DNA of 37,496 nt from Bacteroidota bacterium (GTDB lineage Bacteria; Bacteroidota; Rhodothermia; Rhodothermales; Bin80): contig JAPPNA010000016.1 of NCBI GenBank assembly GCA_028873925.1, positions 1 to 37,496 of the forward strand, in the 5' to 3' direction. A program made the translations under genes and the position numbers. This document shows positions 1-12,533 of this stretch, one piece after another. Each line of letters begins with the position of its first letter. Position 1 is the stretch's first letter. The notes below the pieces were generated by a model. That model was given only the letters and a program-made list of their open reading frames with translations, was not told the DNA's origin and did not search any database.

Positions 1-230
1 CAGAGTATGCCCGCCCTCTTATGAGTCGGACAATGTTCGGTTCCATAGTTTTGCACGAGGCTCGTTTGCCAGAAAAACCCAAATTTCGAAATTCCGAAAG
101 TGCGATGGCTGGCATTTGGGTAATTTGGAAGGCATTGTGAGGCGTGACAGTTCGAACTTAGCATAATTCGGCCTCTGCCCTCGCTGTAAGTCCGTTTTGG
201 GCTAGTTTCGGCCAGATTTTTAAGTGCCAA

Positions 231-1390
231 ATGGACCGACTAGGCGCACTCCTGACCATTGCAGATAGGTTGGCACATTTCCGGGTGCCCGTGGGTGGTT
301 CTGCGCCGCCTTTCGGCGTGCCAGATGCCACGCCTCGTACCGCTTCTGCTGCACCTCTCCAATCTGGTCCAGCCGACGGACGTTTGCCGCGACCACTCCA
401 AGGGCTATCTTACGAAGCCGTGGGTCCGTATGCGTTCCAGCCCGCGGTGGTTCAGATTGTTGATCGCCGACTCAATCGCCGGATGCTGCCGACCCGCTTC
501 CACAAACTCCGGGGCTGATTCCCGCTCCTGGTTCGCCTTTGATTTCCCCGCTTTCTTCGGCAGCGCGTTCACCTTCAGCAACTTATCCAACTTCGCCCGC
601 TTGCGTGGCGATCAGTAGCCGCGGTCGGTGCTGATGGAGCCCAAGGTGGGATAACGACGCTGGGCCTGTTCCACCAAGGGCCGAGCAGGACCCGGTGGTG
701 CAGGATGAACGGATGCTTATGGTAGCACACCGCCAGCCCCAGCTCCGCCTTACCGTGCGCCGTGGAACGGCGCGTTTTCCTTGCGGGTGCGAATCCCGCC
801 CATTAATTATCGTGGTAGCAGCCGTGGCGTGTTATGGAGGTAACGATGTAGCATGAAGCACTGCGGTGTCAAAGGGTTGTCCGTGAGGAAGTGCACATTC
901 GTCTTGGTGACCGCTGAGTCCAGTCGGCCCTCAAGCGAATCGATGATTATGCAGGTTGTGCCTTTACAACCACGACGATGTTGACCTTCAGCAGCACATC
1001 GCAAACTCACATAGTCAATAATCGCCTGCAGCTCATACACGTTACGACCAAAAACATCCGCATGACCGAGCATCTGGCGCTATCCCAATTAGCTGCAGGC
1101 CAGAATCTGGAGGCGGTCAAAATCACAGTCAAGGGCCTGCCTGACTACGCCCAGGACAAAATGTGCCGCAGATCCATGCCCGGAGGCCCCCGGTTATGAT
1201 CCACCTGAGGGCGCACGCGCTCTTAAGGATCTCAAAAACCTTATTGCGAATTTCTTCGTCCGTGTACAGGGCCTGCAGCCCCATCAGCACGGCCGGAATG
1301 TTATCGCGGTGCTTGGGACTGAACCAAGTCTTCCGCCGGACGCATAGCCGGGAAAACAGCTCAAGCACATACGGACCCAACGATACGGCT
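231..1390 (-). pseudogene. Decayed ISNCY (ISDol1-like) transposase
   Basis: Read on the minus strand, fragments of one transposase appear in order but in different frames. The N-terminal part (about 1380-1200) has DNIPAVLMGLQALY. Next comes HNRGPPGMDL, then DCDFDRLQ (about 1130-1095). A central piece (1073-810) has MLGHADVFGRNVYELQ and TNVHFLTD. Then comes LGLAVCYHKHPFILHH (about 740-700). The C-terminal part (590-405) has QHPAIESAINNL, and the tail continues in another frame to about 231. These match the conserved blocks of ISNCY/ISDol1-family transposases as I know them. In-frame stops are visible at 1089-1091 and 1080-1082, and frames change at least three times, so no active enzyme can be made. 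I could not define terminal inverted repeats or a target-site duplication. It marks this end of the window as a place where mobile DNA has landed and decayed. Confidence 0.8.
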
Positions 1391-1582
1391 TAGCGCCCGG
1401 TATCGGTCCCAAATCCGGCGATTTCAGCGAAAGTTAATCAAGACTCGAGAAAAAAGCCAGCAAGACCTGTACGCCACAAACTGCTGTAAATCCCTGTCAC
1501 AGCAACCGAAACCGGCCAAAATCATCCTGAATGCTATCCGTATCCAGCCCAGCACTCATTAGATCTTGTATTTGGCGTTCAG

Positions 1583-1610
1583 TAGCGGCACCCATTTAGA
1601 TGTGCCGCTA
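1583..1610. repeat. Inverted repeat, 9-bp arms
   Basis: TAGCGGCAC (1583-1591) and GTGCCGCTA (1602-1610) are perfect reverse complements around a 10-base spacer. No T-run follows on the plus strand, so a simple intrinsic terminator is not supported. It could be an IS-related end structure or a protein-binding site. Confidence 0.5.
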
Positions 1611-1621
1611 GTGCACGATCA

Positions 1622-1635
1622 CGCGGAATTCCGCG
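1622..1635. repeat. 14-bp perfect palindrome
   Basis: CGCGGAATTCCGCG is fully self-complementary and lies 11 bases after the previous inverted repeat. It may be an operator-like site or part of the same decayed element end. Function unknown. Confidence 0.45.
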
Positions 1636-2495
1636 CCTTAGCAAGAATTAGCCGCTACATCCATCGATCGAAAATCTGGGTGTTTTTTGGGGCGCATACA
1701 TTGGAGCCCCGAATCCTTGCCCATTTGATCCCCGAGTTTTGCTAAATCGTAACATTTCGCACCGGAAGAATCGTGGTACTGGTGGTAAGATATGCCAACG
1801 CATGGCTGCACCCAAACCTGAATCCGGAATTTACTATGAGCACGGCTGAGTCAGCCACAATGGCTACATCGCATTGGGCTTATCCTGAAAGCTCGGGCAT
1901 AGTCCATCCCAATCTGGTCTCAGAAGGGCGTACCCCATCAAGGACGGACCTCGGCAACCTTGAGAGCGAACCCGGAAGAATGCATCAAGTATCGGGTGTC
2001 AGTAGACCGAAGGGTCATTTGTCCGGTCTGCAGTTGCGGGTGGCTCAGTCCATTTCCACCATAGGCATCCGAGGCCGAATGACGAAAGGTTCAGTGCAGC
2101 CGAAAAAATGCGCCAAACAAGCCATCCGGACTGTTGACATTGCTCAACGGATTTTCTCGGGTATTGGGTTGGGGAGATTGAGCACCTCAGGTGGCTGTGA
2201 GCGGGACCTACGGCACTCTCTTCGCGGAAATTGAATGGAAAGCCAAGCGCTCCCCGCTCTCTTGAGACATCGTTCAGGGCACTGCCCGTGCCAGACATCG
2301 CGGTGGCCGATCGTTCGGAAGGGTTGGGTTTGGTCAGAAAGCACCAATACTGACCGGGAATTCCAATTTGGAAGGCTGTCATCGGCCGTTAATGGGTCGG
2401 GATTCCGTATTTTCTGGGCGGAGCCATCAAGCGGAGCGGTGCTCAGATGCTTGATTTAGCTCCACTCATGGCCAGATTATTGACCTGCTAGATCC

Positions 2496-3686
2496 ATGTT
2501 GCGTCCCAAGTTTTTGGCCGTAGATTTTTTTTGCGGAGCAGGCGGCACCACCAGGGGGATGCTGGATGCCCAAGGGTATGTAGTCGCCGGATTGGACAAG
2601 GATGAGGCCTGCCGCAAGACTTATGTGCGAAATAACCCCAACATATGCGCAGATGGCACACGCCCTCATTTCTTGGGGATGGATCTCCATCCGGCATCCA
2701 GCAGCTACCCGCAGGGCCAGCAGGCACAAGCGATGGCCGCAATCGATCGACTGCTGGCTGAATCTAAGGCCCAATTTCCAGGAATACCAGTCCTGTTCGC
2801 AATCTGCGCGCCCTGCCAACCCTTTACCACACTGAGCCGGGCCCACTTAAGCGAAGATAGGGTGATATCTCGCAATCGAGATCGAGGCCTGCTCGCTCAC
2901 GCCTGCAGGTTCGTAGAGCGGTTCGGGCCAGACCTTATTCTATCCGAGAATGTGCCGGGCATTACGGAGCCCCGGTATGGCGGGGTGTGGGGCAAATTTG
3001 AGACCCGGTTGCGGGGACTAGGATACCTGGTCAAGTCGCGACGAGTGTGCACATCTGATTTTGGGATCCCTCAGCACCGCAAGCGAACCATGCTCGCCGC
3101 GGTTCGAGAGTCCTCAATCGGCTCAACGGCTGAATTCGAGTTACCTGCTGAAGACTCTGATGCGGAGATCCGAACTGCAGGTCATGCCCTTGAGGGACTT
3201 CCCCGATTGGATCCCGGAGAAAAGCATGCTGACATACCCAACCATGTTGCCCGTAACCTCAATGAGTTGAACCGCAAGCGTATCGCCTATGCGAAGCCTG
3301 GTGAATCCAACGAGTACCTGTTGCGCACCCCAGAAGGCGATCTTTCGCTCGATTGTCACAGACGAGTAAATCGCAAGATGCGTGTGCGGTGCTTTACCGA
3401 TACGTACACTAGAATGGCACCCGGTCGACCCTCACCGACCATTACGACACGCTGTCACAGCATCACAAACGGACGGTACGGTCATCCTGATGTGACTCAG
3501 ATGCGGGGAATCTCAATGCGCGAGGCTGCACGTCTGCAGTCGTTTGAAGACGATTACAGGTTCTATCCGCTGGACCAGATTGTGGCCGTTGCCAAGATGA
3601 TCGGCAATGCAGTACCGCCCGCACTGGTCCGGTTCTATGCGCAGTGCCTGGTGCAGTTGTATCAAACGCGGATACTCAATCAGTGA
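2496..3686 (+). CDS. DNA (cytosine-5-)-methyltransferase
   Basis: A 396-residue C5-cytosine methyltransferase, which transfers methyl from S-adenosylmethionine to C5 of cytosine in a specific DNA sequence. The diagnostic motifs are all in order: motif I DFFCGAGG (residues 10-17, SAM site), motif IV with catalytic Cys in APCQP (C107), motif VI SENVPG (E151), motif VIII QHRKR (193-197), and a C-terminal motif X with MIGNAVPPAL (about 368-377). The segment between motifs VIII and IX (roughly 215-335) is the expected target-recognition domain, so the target cannot be read from sequence. Length is normal for the family and the enzyme looks intact. The gene lies 16 bases upstream of the GHKL-ATPase gene on the same strand, so it is probably co-transcribed and acts as the self-protection partner of that protein. 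A decayed IS upstream and an absence of housekeeping genes suggest horizontal acquisition. Confidence 0.95.
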   Translation: MLRPKFLAVDFFCGAGGTTRGMLDAQGYVVAGLDKDEACRKTYVRNNPNICADGTRPHFLGMDLHPASSSYPQGQQAQAMAAIDRLLAESKAQFPGIPVLFAICAPCQPFTTLSRAHLSEDRVISRNRDRGLLAHACRFVERFGPDLILSENVPGITEPRYGGVWGKFETRLRGLGYLVKSRRVCTSDFGIPQHRKRTMLAAVRESSIGSTAEFELPAEDSDAEIRTAGHALEGLPRLDPGEKHADIPNHVARNLNELNRKRIAYAKPGESNEYLLRTPEGDLSLDCHRRVNRKMRVRCFTDTYTRMAPGRPSPTITTRCHSITNGRYGHPDVTQMRGISMREAARLQSFEDDYRFYPLDQIVAVAKMIGNAVPPALVRFYAQCLVQLYQTRILNQ

Positions 3687-3690
3687 ACCC

Positions 3691-3695
3691 CAGGA
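3691..3695 (+). promoter_or_regulatory. Shine-Dalgarno-like site before GHKL ATPase
   Basis: CAGGA ends seven bases before the ATG at 3703, inside the 16-base gap after the methyltransferase stop. Good Shine-Dalgarno matches are rare in this window, so it supports the chosen start and possible foreign origin of the cassette. Confidence 0.35.
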
Positions 3696-3702
3696 TTAAT
3701 CC

Positions 3703-5664
3703 ATGTCAGTGACCAAGAAACTCACGCTTAGCTTTCACGGGCGCATACTTGACTCGCTCGGCATACAGATGTATCAGAGCCCAGTAGCAGCCATTGCGGA
3801 ATTAATCGCCAATGCGTGGGATGCGGATGCCGAGCAGGTCAAGATCACGCTTCCAGATAGGGTCGGCGATGCCACGGCCACCGCGTCTGTGACCGATGAC
3901 GGTGTTGGCATGACCTTTGACGAGTGCCAGCAGTGCTACTTGAAGGTGGGTCGTAACAGGCGCTTGGAAGACCACTCCTCGCAAACGAAAGGAGGTCGAC
4001 CTGTACTGGGACGGAAGGGTATTGGCAAGTTTGCGGCATTCGGTATCGCCGTAAAACTGAAAATTGATACAGTCAGTCGTATCAATGGAGAAAGGACCGT
4101 TTTTGAACTGGACTTGGAGGAGCTTAGAGGAGATGAATTTGTCAGCACGAACGAGACTGAAATAAGGGTCGTCGACTACCAAGCTCCGTCCGAGGAGCGG
4201 AAGGCGCGCCATGGCACGACCGTAACTCTGCGCAATCTGAAGTTGAAGCGAACGCCCAATTCGAAAAGATTTGCCGAGTCGATCGCTCAACGATTTCTTC
4301 TGGCGCAAACAGCACATAGATTTGAAGTTATGGTCAATAGGGAATCTCTTTCAGACGAGAATGAACTGGCTGGCATCCAGTTTGATTTTCCAAGAGAGTA
4401 TTCCAAGTCAGAGCGCCCAGATGGTCTGCGAATTGAAGAGGGATTTGGGATTGAGCGACTGGGATCGAATGAAATCCGCTGGCGAATCCGATTTACAAAG
4501 GATCCCATTAATTCGGACGAGCTTCGAGGCATCTCCGTATTCTGTGGAGTCAAGCTGACCCAGACTCCATTCTTTTTTGGTCTGTCAGGAGGATTGCCGG
4601 GCCAGCATGGTCAACAATACATCTCGGGCGTAGTCAAGGCAGATTATCTGGATCAGTTCGCTGAAGATCTGATCACTACGGAGAGGCAGCGAATCAATTG
4701 GGAGCATGATCAGGCTCAATTACTCAGGACATGGGGTCAGGAGAGGATTCGTGACTTGTTGAGACTGTGGAAGGAGCGCCGTTCGGATCATCGGGTAAAG
4801 CAGGTGATGGACAGAATGAGTAGCCTCGGTAAACGGCTTGACCGACTGCCTGGCCATGAACGCCGTGTTGTGGAGCTGGCCCTCAGGAAAATTGCGTCCA
4901 TTGAAACCCTGGCCGATAGTCAGTATAAGGACCTCGCTGGCGCTATACTAACAGCTTGGGAAGGTGGACGGCTACAGGAGCTAATTATCCATGTTGCCGA
5001 TGTAAATGCAATGGACGAGGTATCGTTGTTGAATTTGCTGATCGAGACTCAAGTCCTAAATGCCTTGCATGTAGCGGAGGCGGTAAAGGCGAAGCTGGGC
5101 ATTATTGAGGGACTTCGCCGAAGAATTGGAGAGAAAGAGCTTGAGACCAGGGTGCGCGACTACATAGCGGGAAATCCGTGGCTGCTTTCACCAGAATGGG
5201 AGACATTCAAGAAAGAGACTACTCTCGGTCGCTTGATGGATGAGGTTGCACCGAAGGTTGGACTGGGAAAAGATGAAGCCCGGCGCAAGCGTGTGGACCT
5301 AATAATGTCCTCAGGCGATCAGCTACTAATCGTAGAGTTCATGCGGCCGGGCTTAACAGTGGATTATGATCATCTTTCCCGCTTTCAGTATTATGTTGAT
5401 CGGATTGGGAGCGCTATTGAGGGCGAAACAGCATCAAGGTTTGCGAGAGTTTCGGGATTGATAGTAGCCGACGTGATCAATCGAAGAGGCGAAAATCGCA
5501 GACTGCTTAAACGCATGGCAAGTGCGAATATGCGTGCCTTGAGTTGGGATGGACTACTCAGACATGCAGAAGACCAATGGCGTGAGTTCATGCATGTCCT
5601 GGCTGATCGGTCGCCCGACGATGGATGCCTGCAGCACATAGCTTCAGCTGGCCGGAATGGGTGA
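3703..5664 (+). CDS. GHKL (Hsp90/MORC-like) ATPase with PD-(D/E)XK-like C-terminal region
   Basis: A 653-residue protein. The N-terminal third is a GHKL ATP-binding fold: motif I AELIANAWDADA (E33, N37, D40), motif II DDGVGM (65-70), the ATP-lid motif III GRKGIGK (103-109) and motif IV HGTTVTL near 168-174. The middle (about 345-500) is charged and mostly helical. The C-terminal part (about 485-600) looks like a restriction-type nuclease core: D532 in RVDLIM, then a beta strand ending E545-F-M-R-P, then Q562 with YY in a helix, the order seen in PD-(D/E)XK enzymes, but Met547 sits where the catalytic Lys is expected. Prokaryotic GHKL/MORC-type ATPases linked to cytosine methyltransferases were described by Iyer, Abhiman and Aravind (2008) as parts of restriction-modification systems. 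No Vsr nuclease or Z1 helicase gene is beside it here. AGA, AGG and ATA codons are common, unlike the neighbouring metabolic genes, which suggests transfer. The ATPase call is firm. The nuclease call is inference. Confidence 0.85.
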   Translation: MSVTKKLTLSFHGRILDSLGIQMYQSPVAAIAELIANAWDADAEQVKITLPDRVGDATATASVTDDGVGMTFDECQQCYLKVGRNRRLEDHSSQTKGGRPVLGRKGIGKFAAFGIAVKLKIDTVSRINGERTVFELDLEELRGDEFVSTNETEIRVVDYQAPSEERKARHGTTVTLRNLKLKRTPNSKRFAESIAQRFLLAQTAHRFEVMVNRESLSDENELAGIQFDFPREYSKSERPDGLRIEEGFGIERLGSNEIRWRIRFTKDPINSDELRGISVFCGVKLTQTPFFFGLSGGLPGQHGQQYISGVVKADYLDQFAEDLITTERQRINWEHDQAQLLRTWGQERIRDLLRLWKERRSDHRVKQVMDRMSSLGKRLDRLPGHERRVVELALRKIASIETLADSQYKDLAGAILTAWEGGRLQELIIHVADVNAMDEVSLLNLLIETQVLNALHVAEAVKAKLGIIEGLRRRIGEKELETRVRDYIAGNPWLLSPEWETFKKETTLGRLMDEVAPKVGLGKDEARRKRVDLIMSSGDQLLIVEFMRPGLTVDYDHLSRFQYYVDRIGSAIEGETASRFARVSGLIVADVINRRGENRRLLKRMASANMRALSWDGLLRHAEDQWREFMHVLADRSPDDGCLQHIASAGRNG

Positions 5665-11402: not shown

Positions 11403-12533
11403 TCACTTGTCAGCCGAGGCCAATTCGGACAGCAGGGCATCGAATTTGCTGACATGAGTGGACCAGTCAAGGCGCTCCACAATGCTGCGCAGGGTGGGGG
11501 TCGGCAACGGACGCTCCTCCTTTTGCAGGATGGACTTCAGGATGGTGAAGAGCTCTTTTTCGTCCTGGTACAGGATCGGCGCGTGCAACAGCGGCCTGTG
11601 CAGGCTTGACGGGATGAGTTCAGGATAGCTCAGGTGGTCAGGCAGTAGCGGATGGCACCCGCAATAGATGGCCTCCATCATGGCAATGCCGAAGAATTCG
11701 TGGATCGCAGTGGACACCACGATATCGGCCCGGTGAAGCAGCTGACTGTATTCCGCAAAATCCTCCGCGTACCCGTAATGAAGAATCCGCTCGGCGTACC
11801 GCTCAAAGGTCTCGTCAAACTGGCTGTGCTGTTTCTCAAAGTGTTTCCCGGCTAGGATAAGCCGGAACTTGCAGCCAGTATCATCGAGGCGGTTGATCAG
11901 CTTAAAGAATGCGTCAGGGTTCTTGTCGTACTGCCAGCGCTGGTTCCACAGGATTACCGGCGGAAGGCCGGAATCCTCTTTGCCGGTCGAAAATTGAGCG
12001 TGTGAGGTAAGATCAAGGCCCACATGCAGGACACTGCTCTTGGCGCGGATCTCGGCGATGGTGTGCAGGTGCGTGTAATCCGGGTACACGCTCAGCAGCC
12101 CCGGCAGCGCCCGCATGAACTCGTCATAGTGAAACTGCGAGTTGAACACCACGCGGTCCGCCGCCAGGCAGGACAGATAATTGATGTGCGCGTAGGACAG
12201 ATCCCGCTTTTCCTCCTCCGGGAGGGGATAGGTCAGCTGATTGTCGTGCAGGTAGTACAAAAGCGGCACGCCGGGCAGCTCACGCCGCGCAAGGGCCAGG
12301 AAGGCCGGCACATTGACCATACTGGAAGCAAGCACCACATCCGGCGTAAATCCGGATTCAACCAGCTGCCGGGTCTTGCGGGCCAGCGTATGGGCACCAC
12401 CGTGCAGTCGCCACTTCCAGAAACGGGCGGCCATAGTAACGAGCCTGATGTCGTGGCGGCTGTTTTCTGTCAGACCCTTGAAGAAATTTCGGTGCGAGCC
12501 GCCGTACCACGGCTCCAGTGCCAGTACATTCAT
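11403..12533 (-). CDS. tRNA-queuosine alpha-mannosyltransferase-like glycosyltransferase (DUF3524)
   Basis: A 376-residue GT-B glycosyltransferase. The N-terminus MNVLALEPWYGGSHRNFF, followed by MAARFWKWRLHGGA (about 33-47), is the hallmark of the DUF3524/GTDC1 family. The human member (QTMAN/GTDC1) mannosylates queuosine in tRNA-Asp. The C-terminal half has a Rossmann nucleotide-sugar lobe, with VILWNQRWQYDKNPD and, near the end, ADIVVSTAIHEFFGIAMMEA carrying the acidic EFFG-type donor motif. The N-terminal DUF3524 domain plus GT-B lobe and the length agree with bacterial homologues. No queuosine-synthesis genes lie in this window, so the tRNA substrate is an inference from family. No signal peptide, so it is cytoplasmic. 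The ATG at 12533 gives the canonical N-terminus. It appears to be a single-gene transcription unit. Confidence 0.88.
   Translation of the reverse strand: MNVLALEPWYGGSHRNFFKGLTENSRHDIRLVTMAARFWKWRLHGGAHTLARKTRQLVESGFTPDVVLASSMVNVPAFLALARRELPGVPLLYYLHDNQLTYPLPEEEKRDLSYAHINYLSCLAADRVVFNSQFHYDEFMRALPGLLSVYPDYTHLHTIAEIRAKSSVLHVGLDLTSHAQFSTGKEDSGLPPVILWNQRWQYDKNPDAFFKLINRLDDTGCKFRLILAGKHFEKQHSQFDETFERYAERILHYGYAEDFAEYSQLLHRADIVVSTAIHEFFGIAMMEAIYCGCHPLLPDHLSYPELIPSSLHRPLLHAPILYQDEKELFTILKSILQKEERPLPTPTLRSIVERLDWSTHVSKFDALLSELASADK

What the first reader, a model, noticed from the sequence alone, without database searches (positions are those of the whole stretch)
2496..5664. Two-gene cassette: C5 methyltransferase + GHKL ATPase with nuclease-like end
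An intact cytosine-5 methyltransferase is followed after 16 bases by a GHKL/MORC-like ATPase (E33/N37, DDGVGM, GRKGIGK) whose C-terminus looks like a PD-(D/E)XK core. The pair sits beside IS debris with no restriction endonuclease gene, Vsr or Z1 helicase in the neighbourhood. Iyer, Abhiman and Aravind (2008) described GHKL ATPases in restriction-modification systems, often with more components. A minimal two-gene version, with the ATPase and putative cutting region in one chain, is a good candidate for a distinct compact restriction or anti-phage system. The seen part is motifs and arrangement; the restriction role is inference.
Basis: partly seen in the sequence, partly recalled or inferred. 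Interest (0 to 1): 0.78.

Follow-up and report, generated by a model that had tools for sequence, protein, structure and literature searches.

The report
Two-gene restriction system with lysine-less nuclease
This is a compact two-gene DNA restriction system of a known kind (a DNA methylase plus a DNA-cutting enzyme fused to an ATP-driven clamp), but it belongs to a widespread branch, also found in E. coli prophages, whose cutting domain has lost the lysine normally needed for cutting and gained a matching arginine and histidine instead.

Summary
An intact C5 methyltransferase (2496-3686) is followed after 16 bases by a 653-aa GHKL ATPase (3703-5664). Its last ~170 residues are predicted with confidence as a PD-(D/E)XK nuclease fold (pLDDT 92.5; Z 12.3 to EndoMS/NucS). 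The system is not new in kind. The ATPase is a full-length relative of the BbrUII/HgiDII restriction enzymes (NCBIfam 299 bits, below the 550-bit equivalog cut-off), i.e. the paraMORC3 architecture of Iyer et al. 2008. So the 'missing' restriction endonuclease is this protein, and Vsr is present beside the closest relatives.

What is new here is the branch. In 25 of 27 non-redundant clade members the catalytic lysine is methionine, and in two it is valine. All 27 also carry His557 and Arg560; lysine-bearing relatives have Gln at 560 in 20 of 23. The branch is one clade when the motif columns are left out, the nuclease domain is under strong purifying selection, and 24 of 27 have a C5 methyltransferase next door. 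Best reading: an active restriction-modification system with a rebuilt, lysine-free active site. A non-cutting, clamp-like action is not excluded. No activity was tested.

The parts
2496..3686 (+). C5-cytosine DNA methyltransferase, 396 aa, all catalytic motifs present
   Evidence: PF00145 E=1.6e-38; PADLOC MTase_II 204 bits; 52-65% identical to the MTases beside the ATPase of L030, L031, L033, L036
3703..5664 (+). GHKL-S5-PD-(D/E)XK protein (paraMORC3 / BbrUII-HgiDII-like restriction enzyme), 653 aa
   Evidence: NF050001 E=6.4e-89, residues 14-632 of model 8-644/659, 299 bits versus cut-off 550
3784..4218 (+). GHKL ATPase domain (residues 28-172): E33/N37, D65-D-G-V-G-M70, G103-R-K-G-I-G-K109
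   Evidence: PF13589 E=1.5e-20; Foldseek of the whole model hits TRAP1/Hsp90 and MORC ATPases, E about 1e-13 to 1e-11
5143..5610 (+). PD-(D/E)XK-fold nuclease domain (about residues 481-636)
   Evidence: AF2 model of residues 470-653, pLDDT 92.5, pTM 0.86; EndoMS 5gke Z 12.3 rmsd 2.4 over 108; NucS 2vld Z 12.2
5290..5382 (+). Rebuilt active-site motif R530-x-D532 ... E545-x-M547-R-P-G ... D554-x-x-H557-x-x-R560
   Evidence: M or V at 547 with H557 and R560 in 27/27 clade members; K547 with Q560 in 20/23 others; HMM alignment to NucS pairs M547 with the ELKR lysine and R560 with its Q
3687..3702 (+). 16-base gap between the genes, consistent with one transcript
   Evidence: sequence; most clade relatives have short gaps or overlaps, some a Vsr gene between
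200..1760 (.). decayed mobile-element-like repeat upstream (not part of the system)
   Evidence: 24 matches in the genome, itself included; the partial copies elsewhere are 70-96% identical

Best explanation
A two-gene restriction-modification system. The C5 methyltransferase marks a short DNA site on the host chromosome. The partner is a GHKL-clamp restriction enzyme of the paraMORC3 / HgiDII-BbrUII kind: two chains close through the ATPase domain on DNA and bring two PD-(D/E)XK domains together to cut unmethylated sites. In this branch the nuclease keeps the metal-binding pair D532 and E545, but the lysine is methionine or valine, and H557/R560 on the following helix probably take over its charge-stabilising role. 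Shown here by computation: gene pair, folds, linkage, covariation, purifying selection, location at a known phage-defence hotspot in an E. coli prophage. Inferred: dimer clamp, DNA cutting, site protection, role of H557/R560, ATP dependence, recognition site.
For: Full-length match to NF050001. Nuclease fold by AF2 and structural comparison. C5 MTase adjacent (or one gene away) in 24 of 27 non-redundant clade members, in either gene order, sometimes overlapping by a base; all 14 clade members found in IMG/VR likewise. The window's MTase subclade (L030, L031, L033, L036) sits beside ATPases from the same subclade. M/V547 with H557 and R560 in 27/27; one clade with motif columns left out, SH-aLRT 92. 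dN/dS of the nuclease domain 0.012-0.12, like the ATPase domain 0.03-0.16, in pairs where dS could be estimated. E. coli copies with EFMRPG: in a P2-like prophage between the replication endonuclease (gpA) and the portal gene, the spot PMC9122126 describes as an antiviral hotspot, and in a lambda-like prophage. An ATPase and a nuclease point mutant of the K-type paraMORC3-like VcSduA both abolish phage defence (PMC12137116).
Against: Loss of the PD-(D/E)XK lysine usually means an inactive nuclease, and K557A kills VcSduA. Three of 27 lack an adjacent MTase: L034 (one 7.5 kb away), L046 (contig ends), L085 (none on its 97-kb contig). No palindrome is clearly avoided in common by four genomes with this branch, so no site could be assigned. 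The window protein is well below the family's curated cut-off. Some dS values are saturated, so the dN/dS figures are rough.
Confidence: 0.68

Rival explanations
1. The nuclease domain is catalytically dead and the protein works as an ATP-gated clamp that blocks or silences unmethylated invading DNA, like eukaryotic MORCs, with the MTase marking self.
For: Lysine replaced by hydrophobic residues throughout the clade; whole-model similarity to MORC ATPases; fixed C5 MTase linkage. A dead domain that still binds DNA could be under purifying selection.
Against: D532 and E545, the metal-binding pair, are invariant in A4; K to M/V goes together with gain of H557 and R560, which simple decay does not predict.
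Confidence: 0.15
2. An ordinary HgiDII/BbrUII isoschizomer (GTCGAC) whose active site tolerates methionine, with nothing else changed.
For: Full-length relationship to NF050001.
Against: 299 bits versus a 550-bit cut-off; the K-type copy in the same genome scores 557 although truncated. GTCGAC is avoided in a K-type control genome (21 seen, 45 expected, z -3.6) but not in the window's genome (17/18) or clearly in three others of this branch. MTase target-recognition regions differ.
Confidence: 0.08
3. A Shedu-like stand-alone nuclease with an MTase that is nearby by chance.
For: Fold similarity to Shedu (Z 9.1); VcSduA is a GHKL-PD-(D/E)XK protein filed under Shedu.
Against: 24 of 27 clade members have the MTase adjacent, across several phyla; the window protein had no Pfam SduA_C match at E up to 1.
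Confidence: 0.05
4. The pair in this genome is a decaying remnant beside IS debris, with no present function.
For: Adjacent debris; other broken GHKL/MTase genes in the same genome (C82).
Against: Both window genes are intact with all conserved residues.
Confidence: 0.04

Closest known systems
BbrUII / HgiDII restriction-modification systems (GTCGAC; NCBIfam NF050001)
   Same: C5 MTase plus a GHKL protein of about 650 aa as restriction enzyme, full-length alignable; MTases homologous
   Different: Window protein scores 299 bits against a 550-bit cut-off; M instead of K in the active site, with H557/R560; no sign of GTCGAC avoidance
paraMORC3 (Iyer, Abhiman and Aravind 2008, PMC2292703)
   Same: GHKL + S5 + C-terminal nuclease of the restriction-endonuclease fold in one chain, in R-M neighbourhoods
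   Different: paraMORC3 was defined with conserved E-D-ExK; here ExM/ExV
VcSduA, GHKL-type Shedu of Vibrio cholerae (PMC12137116)
   Same: GHKL ATPase N-terminus and PD-(D/E)XK C-terminus; anti-phage activity shown
   Different: Described as a system of its own; catalytic K557 is essential there and has no counterpart here
EndoMS/NucS mismatch endonuclease (5gke, 2vld)
   Same: Closest solved fold of the nuclease domain (Z 12.3 and 12.2); weak sequence match across the motif (E=0.046)
   Different: NucS has ELKR and Q where this has EFMR and R; no GHKL domain
paraMORC-Ymh (HEPN) proteins in R-M neighbourhoods (PMC3710099)
   Same: Same N-terminal ATPase half beside C5 MTases
   Different: C-terminus is a predicted RNase (HEPN, PF09509), not PD-(D/E)XK

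Membership tests
paraMORC3 | N-terminal GHKL domain with intact ATP-binding motifs | tested here: met
   PF13589 E=1.5e-20; E33, N37, D65, G67, G69, G103-K109 conserved
paraMORC3 | C-terminal nuclease domain of the restriction-endonuclease fold | tested here: met
   AF2 domain model, Z 12.3 to EndoMS
paraMORC3 | conserved E-D-ExK active site | tested here: not met
   E505, D532, E545 present; K is M547
BbrUII/HgiDII restriction enzymes (NF050001 equivalog) | score above curated cut-off 550 bits | tested here: not met
   299 bits
BbrUII/HgiDII restriction enzymes (NF050001 equivalog) | paired C5 MTase | tested here: met
   window 2496-3686; 24 of 27 clade members
BbrUII/HgiDII restriction enzymes (NF050001 equivalog) | recognises GTCGAC | tested here: inconclusive
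   no avoidance in the window's genome (17 seen, 18 expected) while a K-type control shows it (21/45); avoidance is only indirect evidence
Type II restriction-modification system | cuts unmethylated DNA at the MTase's site | not testable with these tools
   needs biochemistry
Shedu (SduA) | DUF4263/SduA_C domain (PF14082) | tested here: not met
   no PF14082 match at E up to 1 for the window protein; fold similarity only
MORC-helicase-type R-M system (Z1/SF2 helicase) | linked superfamily II helicase | tested here: inconclusive
   no helicase among the six following genes that were scanned with Pfam; the debris upstream gave no Pfam match and the contig starts 2.5 kb upstream

The most novel reading that the evidence does not exclude
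The clade is a restriction system that does not cut: the MTase marks self, and the ATP-driven GHKL clamp with a lysine-less nuclease-fold domain recognises and topologically traps or silences unmethylated DNA, a bacterial counterpart of MORC silencing.
Probability: 0.13. Interest if true: 0.8.

Novelty: new variant of a known kind. Interest (0 to 1): 0.47.

Why it matters
The lysine of PD-(D/E)XK nucleases is treated as a hallmark of activity, and its loss is routinely read as inactivation. Here is a whole MTase-linked, often phage-borne clade in which it has been replaced once by Met/Val together with a His and an Arg. If these enzymes cut, they show a different way to build this active site and mean that motif-based searches miss active nucleases. 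If they do not cut, they would be a non-cleaving kind of restriction. Either outcome can be tested directly, because close homologues sit in ordinary E. coli prophages, annotated only as 'ATP-binding protein' and 'DNA cytosine methyltransferase'. It would also bear on why a Type II-like enzyme carries a full GHKL ATPase.

Tried and rejected
Reading this as a new minimal system: rejected, since the architecture and gene pairing are known. Vsr absence as a defining trait: rejected. Sequencing error for M547: rejected, since M occurs in 25 independent records and V in two more. Recognition site by palindrome avoidance: the window genome avoids GGCGCC (24/119), TCCGGA (92/192) and GACGTC (1/23), but none is shared by the three other carriers and the genome holds several R-M sets, so no assignment. 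phmmer of the whole protein against the PDB gave only weak GHKL hits. Model coordinates are not readable in the Python box, so distances between M547/H557/R560 and D532/E545 were not measured. Literature searches for a described K-to-M swap in this fold found none in the held library, which is no proof of absence; REBASE could not be searched.

Full report
OBSERVATION. The two open reading frames are as described: 2496-3686 (396 aa) and 3703-5664 (653 aa), 16 bases apart. The first is a C5 cytosine methyltransferase with all motifs (PF00145 E=1.6e-38; sequence). The second has a GHKL ATPase domain (PF13589 E=1.5e-20) with E33/N37, DDGVGM and GRKGIGK. The region before the pair is a decayed repeat with 24 matches in the genome. 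The following genes are ordinary (GWxTD-domain protein, class II tRNA synthetase of the D/K/N group, nitroreductase). The window is contig C57 of a 3.93-Mb, 98.6% complete genome in 185 contigs. It is placed in the same class as Fodinibius halophilus (L018 and L044 are the same 99,215-base contig), so it is probably a Rhodothermia-like member of the Bacteroidota (inference).

WHAT THE ATPASE IS. The NCBIfam model for BbrUII/HgiDII restriction enzymes aligns over its full length (E=6.4e-89, residues 14-632, model 8-644 of 659), but at 299 bits against a cut-off of 550. PADLOC also files it with Type II restriction enzymes (1.8e-40). M.HgiDII is a characterised m5C MTase of GTCGAC and M.BbrUII a characterised m5C MTase (PMC5867850). 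Iyer et al. 2008 defined paraMORC3 as GHKL + S5 + a C-terminal nuclease of the restriction-endonuclease fold with conserved E-D-ExK. So the architecture and the two-gene design are known, and the 'missing' endonuclease is this protein.

NUCLEASE FOLD. AlphaFold2 on residues 470-653 with 26 rows gives pLDDT 92.5 and pTM 0.86, with a helix-strand(31-38)-helix-strand(61-68)-strand(71-77)-helix(86-105)-strand(113-120) core. The second-look aligner gives EndoMS Z 12.3 (rmsd 2.4 over 108), NucS Z 12.2, FokI 10.4, Shedu 9.1. The full-length model (pLDDT 80, pTM 0.57) matches TRAP1/Hsp90 and MORC ATPases. The relative placement of the domains is not reliable at that pTM.

THE ODD FEATURE. Where PD-(D/E)XK enzymes have E-x-K the window has E545-F-M547-R-P-G. 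A genome scan, a viral scan, a plasmid search and relatives' genomes gave enough homologues for a non-redundant alignment of 50. In it, 27 have M (25) or V (2) at 547, and all 27 also have H557 and R560; 23 have K547, of which 20 have Q560, two R and one K. An HMM alignment to P. abyssi NucS (weak, E=0.046) pairs M547 with the lysine of ELKR and R560 with a glutamine. With columns around the motif left out, the M/V rows form one side of a branch (SH-aLRT 92; the K group needs one change, 0 of 500 shuffles as low). So this is most simply one ancestral swap, kept through wide divergence (members 33-56% identical to the window protein). The nuclease domain shows dN/dS 0.012-0.12 in pairs where dS could be estimated, no higher than the ATPase domain (0.03-0.16). 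It is not drifting.

LINKAGE. Of the 27 clade members, 24 have a C5 MTase next to them or one gene away, before or after, sometimes overlapping by a base. The three others: L034 (Sphingomonas) has its only C5 MTase 7.5 kb downstream, L046 ends on a contig edge, L085 has none on its 97-kb contig. All 14 clade members from IMG/VR have it too. The window's MTase belongs to a subclade (52-65% identity to those of L030, L031, L033, L036) whose ATPases also group with the window's, which suggests that the pairs travel as units. Vsr genes stand between or beside the two in L030, L033, L043, L046 and L084, so Vsr absence in the window is a local feature.

PHAGE CONTEXT. 27 of 5,426 complete E. coli genomes match the pair (8 over at least 80% of its length). 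Of two examined, strain A13 carries it in a P2-like prophage between the replication endonuclease and the portal gene and strain H9 in a lambda-like prophage before DUF1367/DUF1133 genes; both proteins carry EFMRPG. The gpA-portal interval is the antiviral hotspot described in PMC9122126. A K-type homologue named ParaMORC3 with a Dcm gene occupies the same interval of phage PhiR44_1 (751 bits to NF050001). A K-type GHKL-PD-(D/E)XK protein, VcSduA, blocks phages, and both E27A and K557A abolish this (PMC12137116).

MECHANISM. Most likely the MTase marks a site, and the ATPase protein dimerises on DNA through its GHKL domain and cuts unmarked DNA with its paired nuclease domains. The M/V clade keeps D532 and E545 and probably replaces the lysine's role with R560 and/or H557 on the next helix. 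Cutting, ATP use and the role of these residues are inferred. The main rival is a dead nuclease in a DNA-trapping clamp. Purifying selection and the coordinated replacement argue against plain decay but do not prove cutting.

SITE. A genome with a bona fide K-type enzyme avoids GTCGAC (21 seen, 45 expected), while the window's genome (17/18) and three other carriers do not clearly. No other palindrome stood out as common to the carriers. The site of the window system is unknown.

VERDICT. The new element is a conserved lysine-free active-site variant with a covarying His/Arg, present in E. coli prophages and directly testable.

Noticed in passing
L050, L052, L053, L056, L058 (genome-contig loci) and L022: Shorter GHKL proteins (546-578 aa) with the same N-terminal half sit beside C5 MTases. 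In the four scanned (L022, L050, L053, L058) the C-terminus is Hypoth_Ymh (PF09509, a HEPN family), a predicted RNase. The fusion is described in PMC3710099; the C5 MTases of L052, L053, L056 and L058 are the nearest to the window's MTase outside its own subclade.
   Followed up: partly
G000:C49:38864-40540, L013: The same genome holds a second, K-type BbrUII/HgiDII-like ATPase-nuclease (557 bits), cut off by the contig end.
   Followed up: partly
G000:C82 (L002) and G000:C134 (L007, L008): Further GHKL/C5-MTase sets in the same genome: C82 has an MTase matched in two separate pieces and a GHKL gene with an internal stop, C134 has two GHKL proteins and a C5 MTase.
   Followed up: no
genomes G266, G399, G401 (same family as the window's genome): Related genomes carry three to five GHKL-nuclease genes each, an unusual load; two of them are the valine variants L084 and L085.
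   Followed up: partly
window genome sample of 324 kb (L109-L124 and window): Strong avoidance of GACGTC (1 seen, 23 expected), GGCGCC (24/119) and TCCGGA (92/192), presumably from resident R-M systems; which one is unknown.
   Followed up: no
window 200-1760: Decayed repeat with partial copies (70-96% identity) scattered over the genome, probably an old IS family.
   Followed up: partly
window 11403-12533 (-): tRNA-queuosine alpha-mannosyltransferase-like protein (QTMAN_N E=9.8e-58).
   Followed up: no
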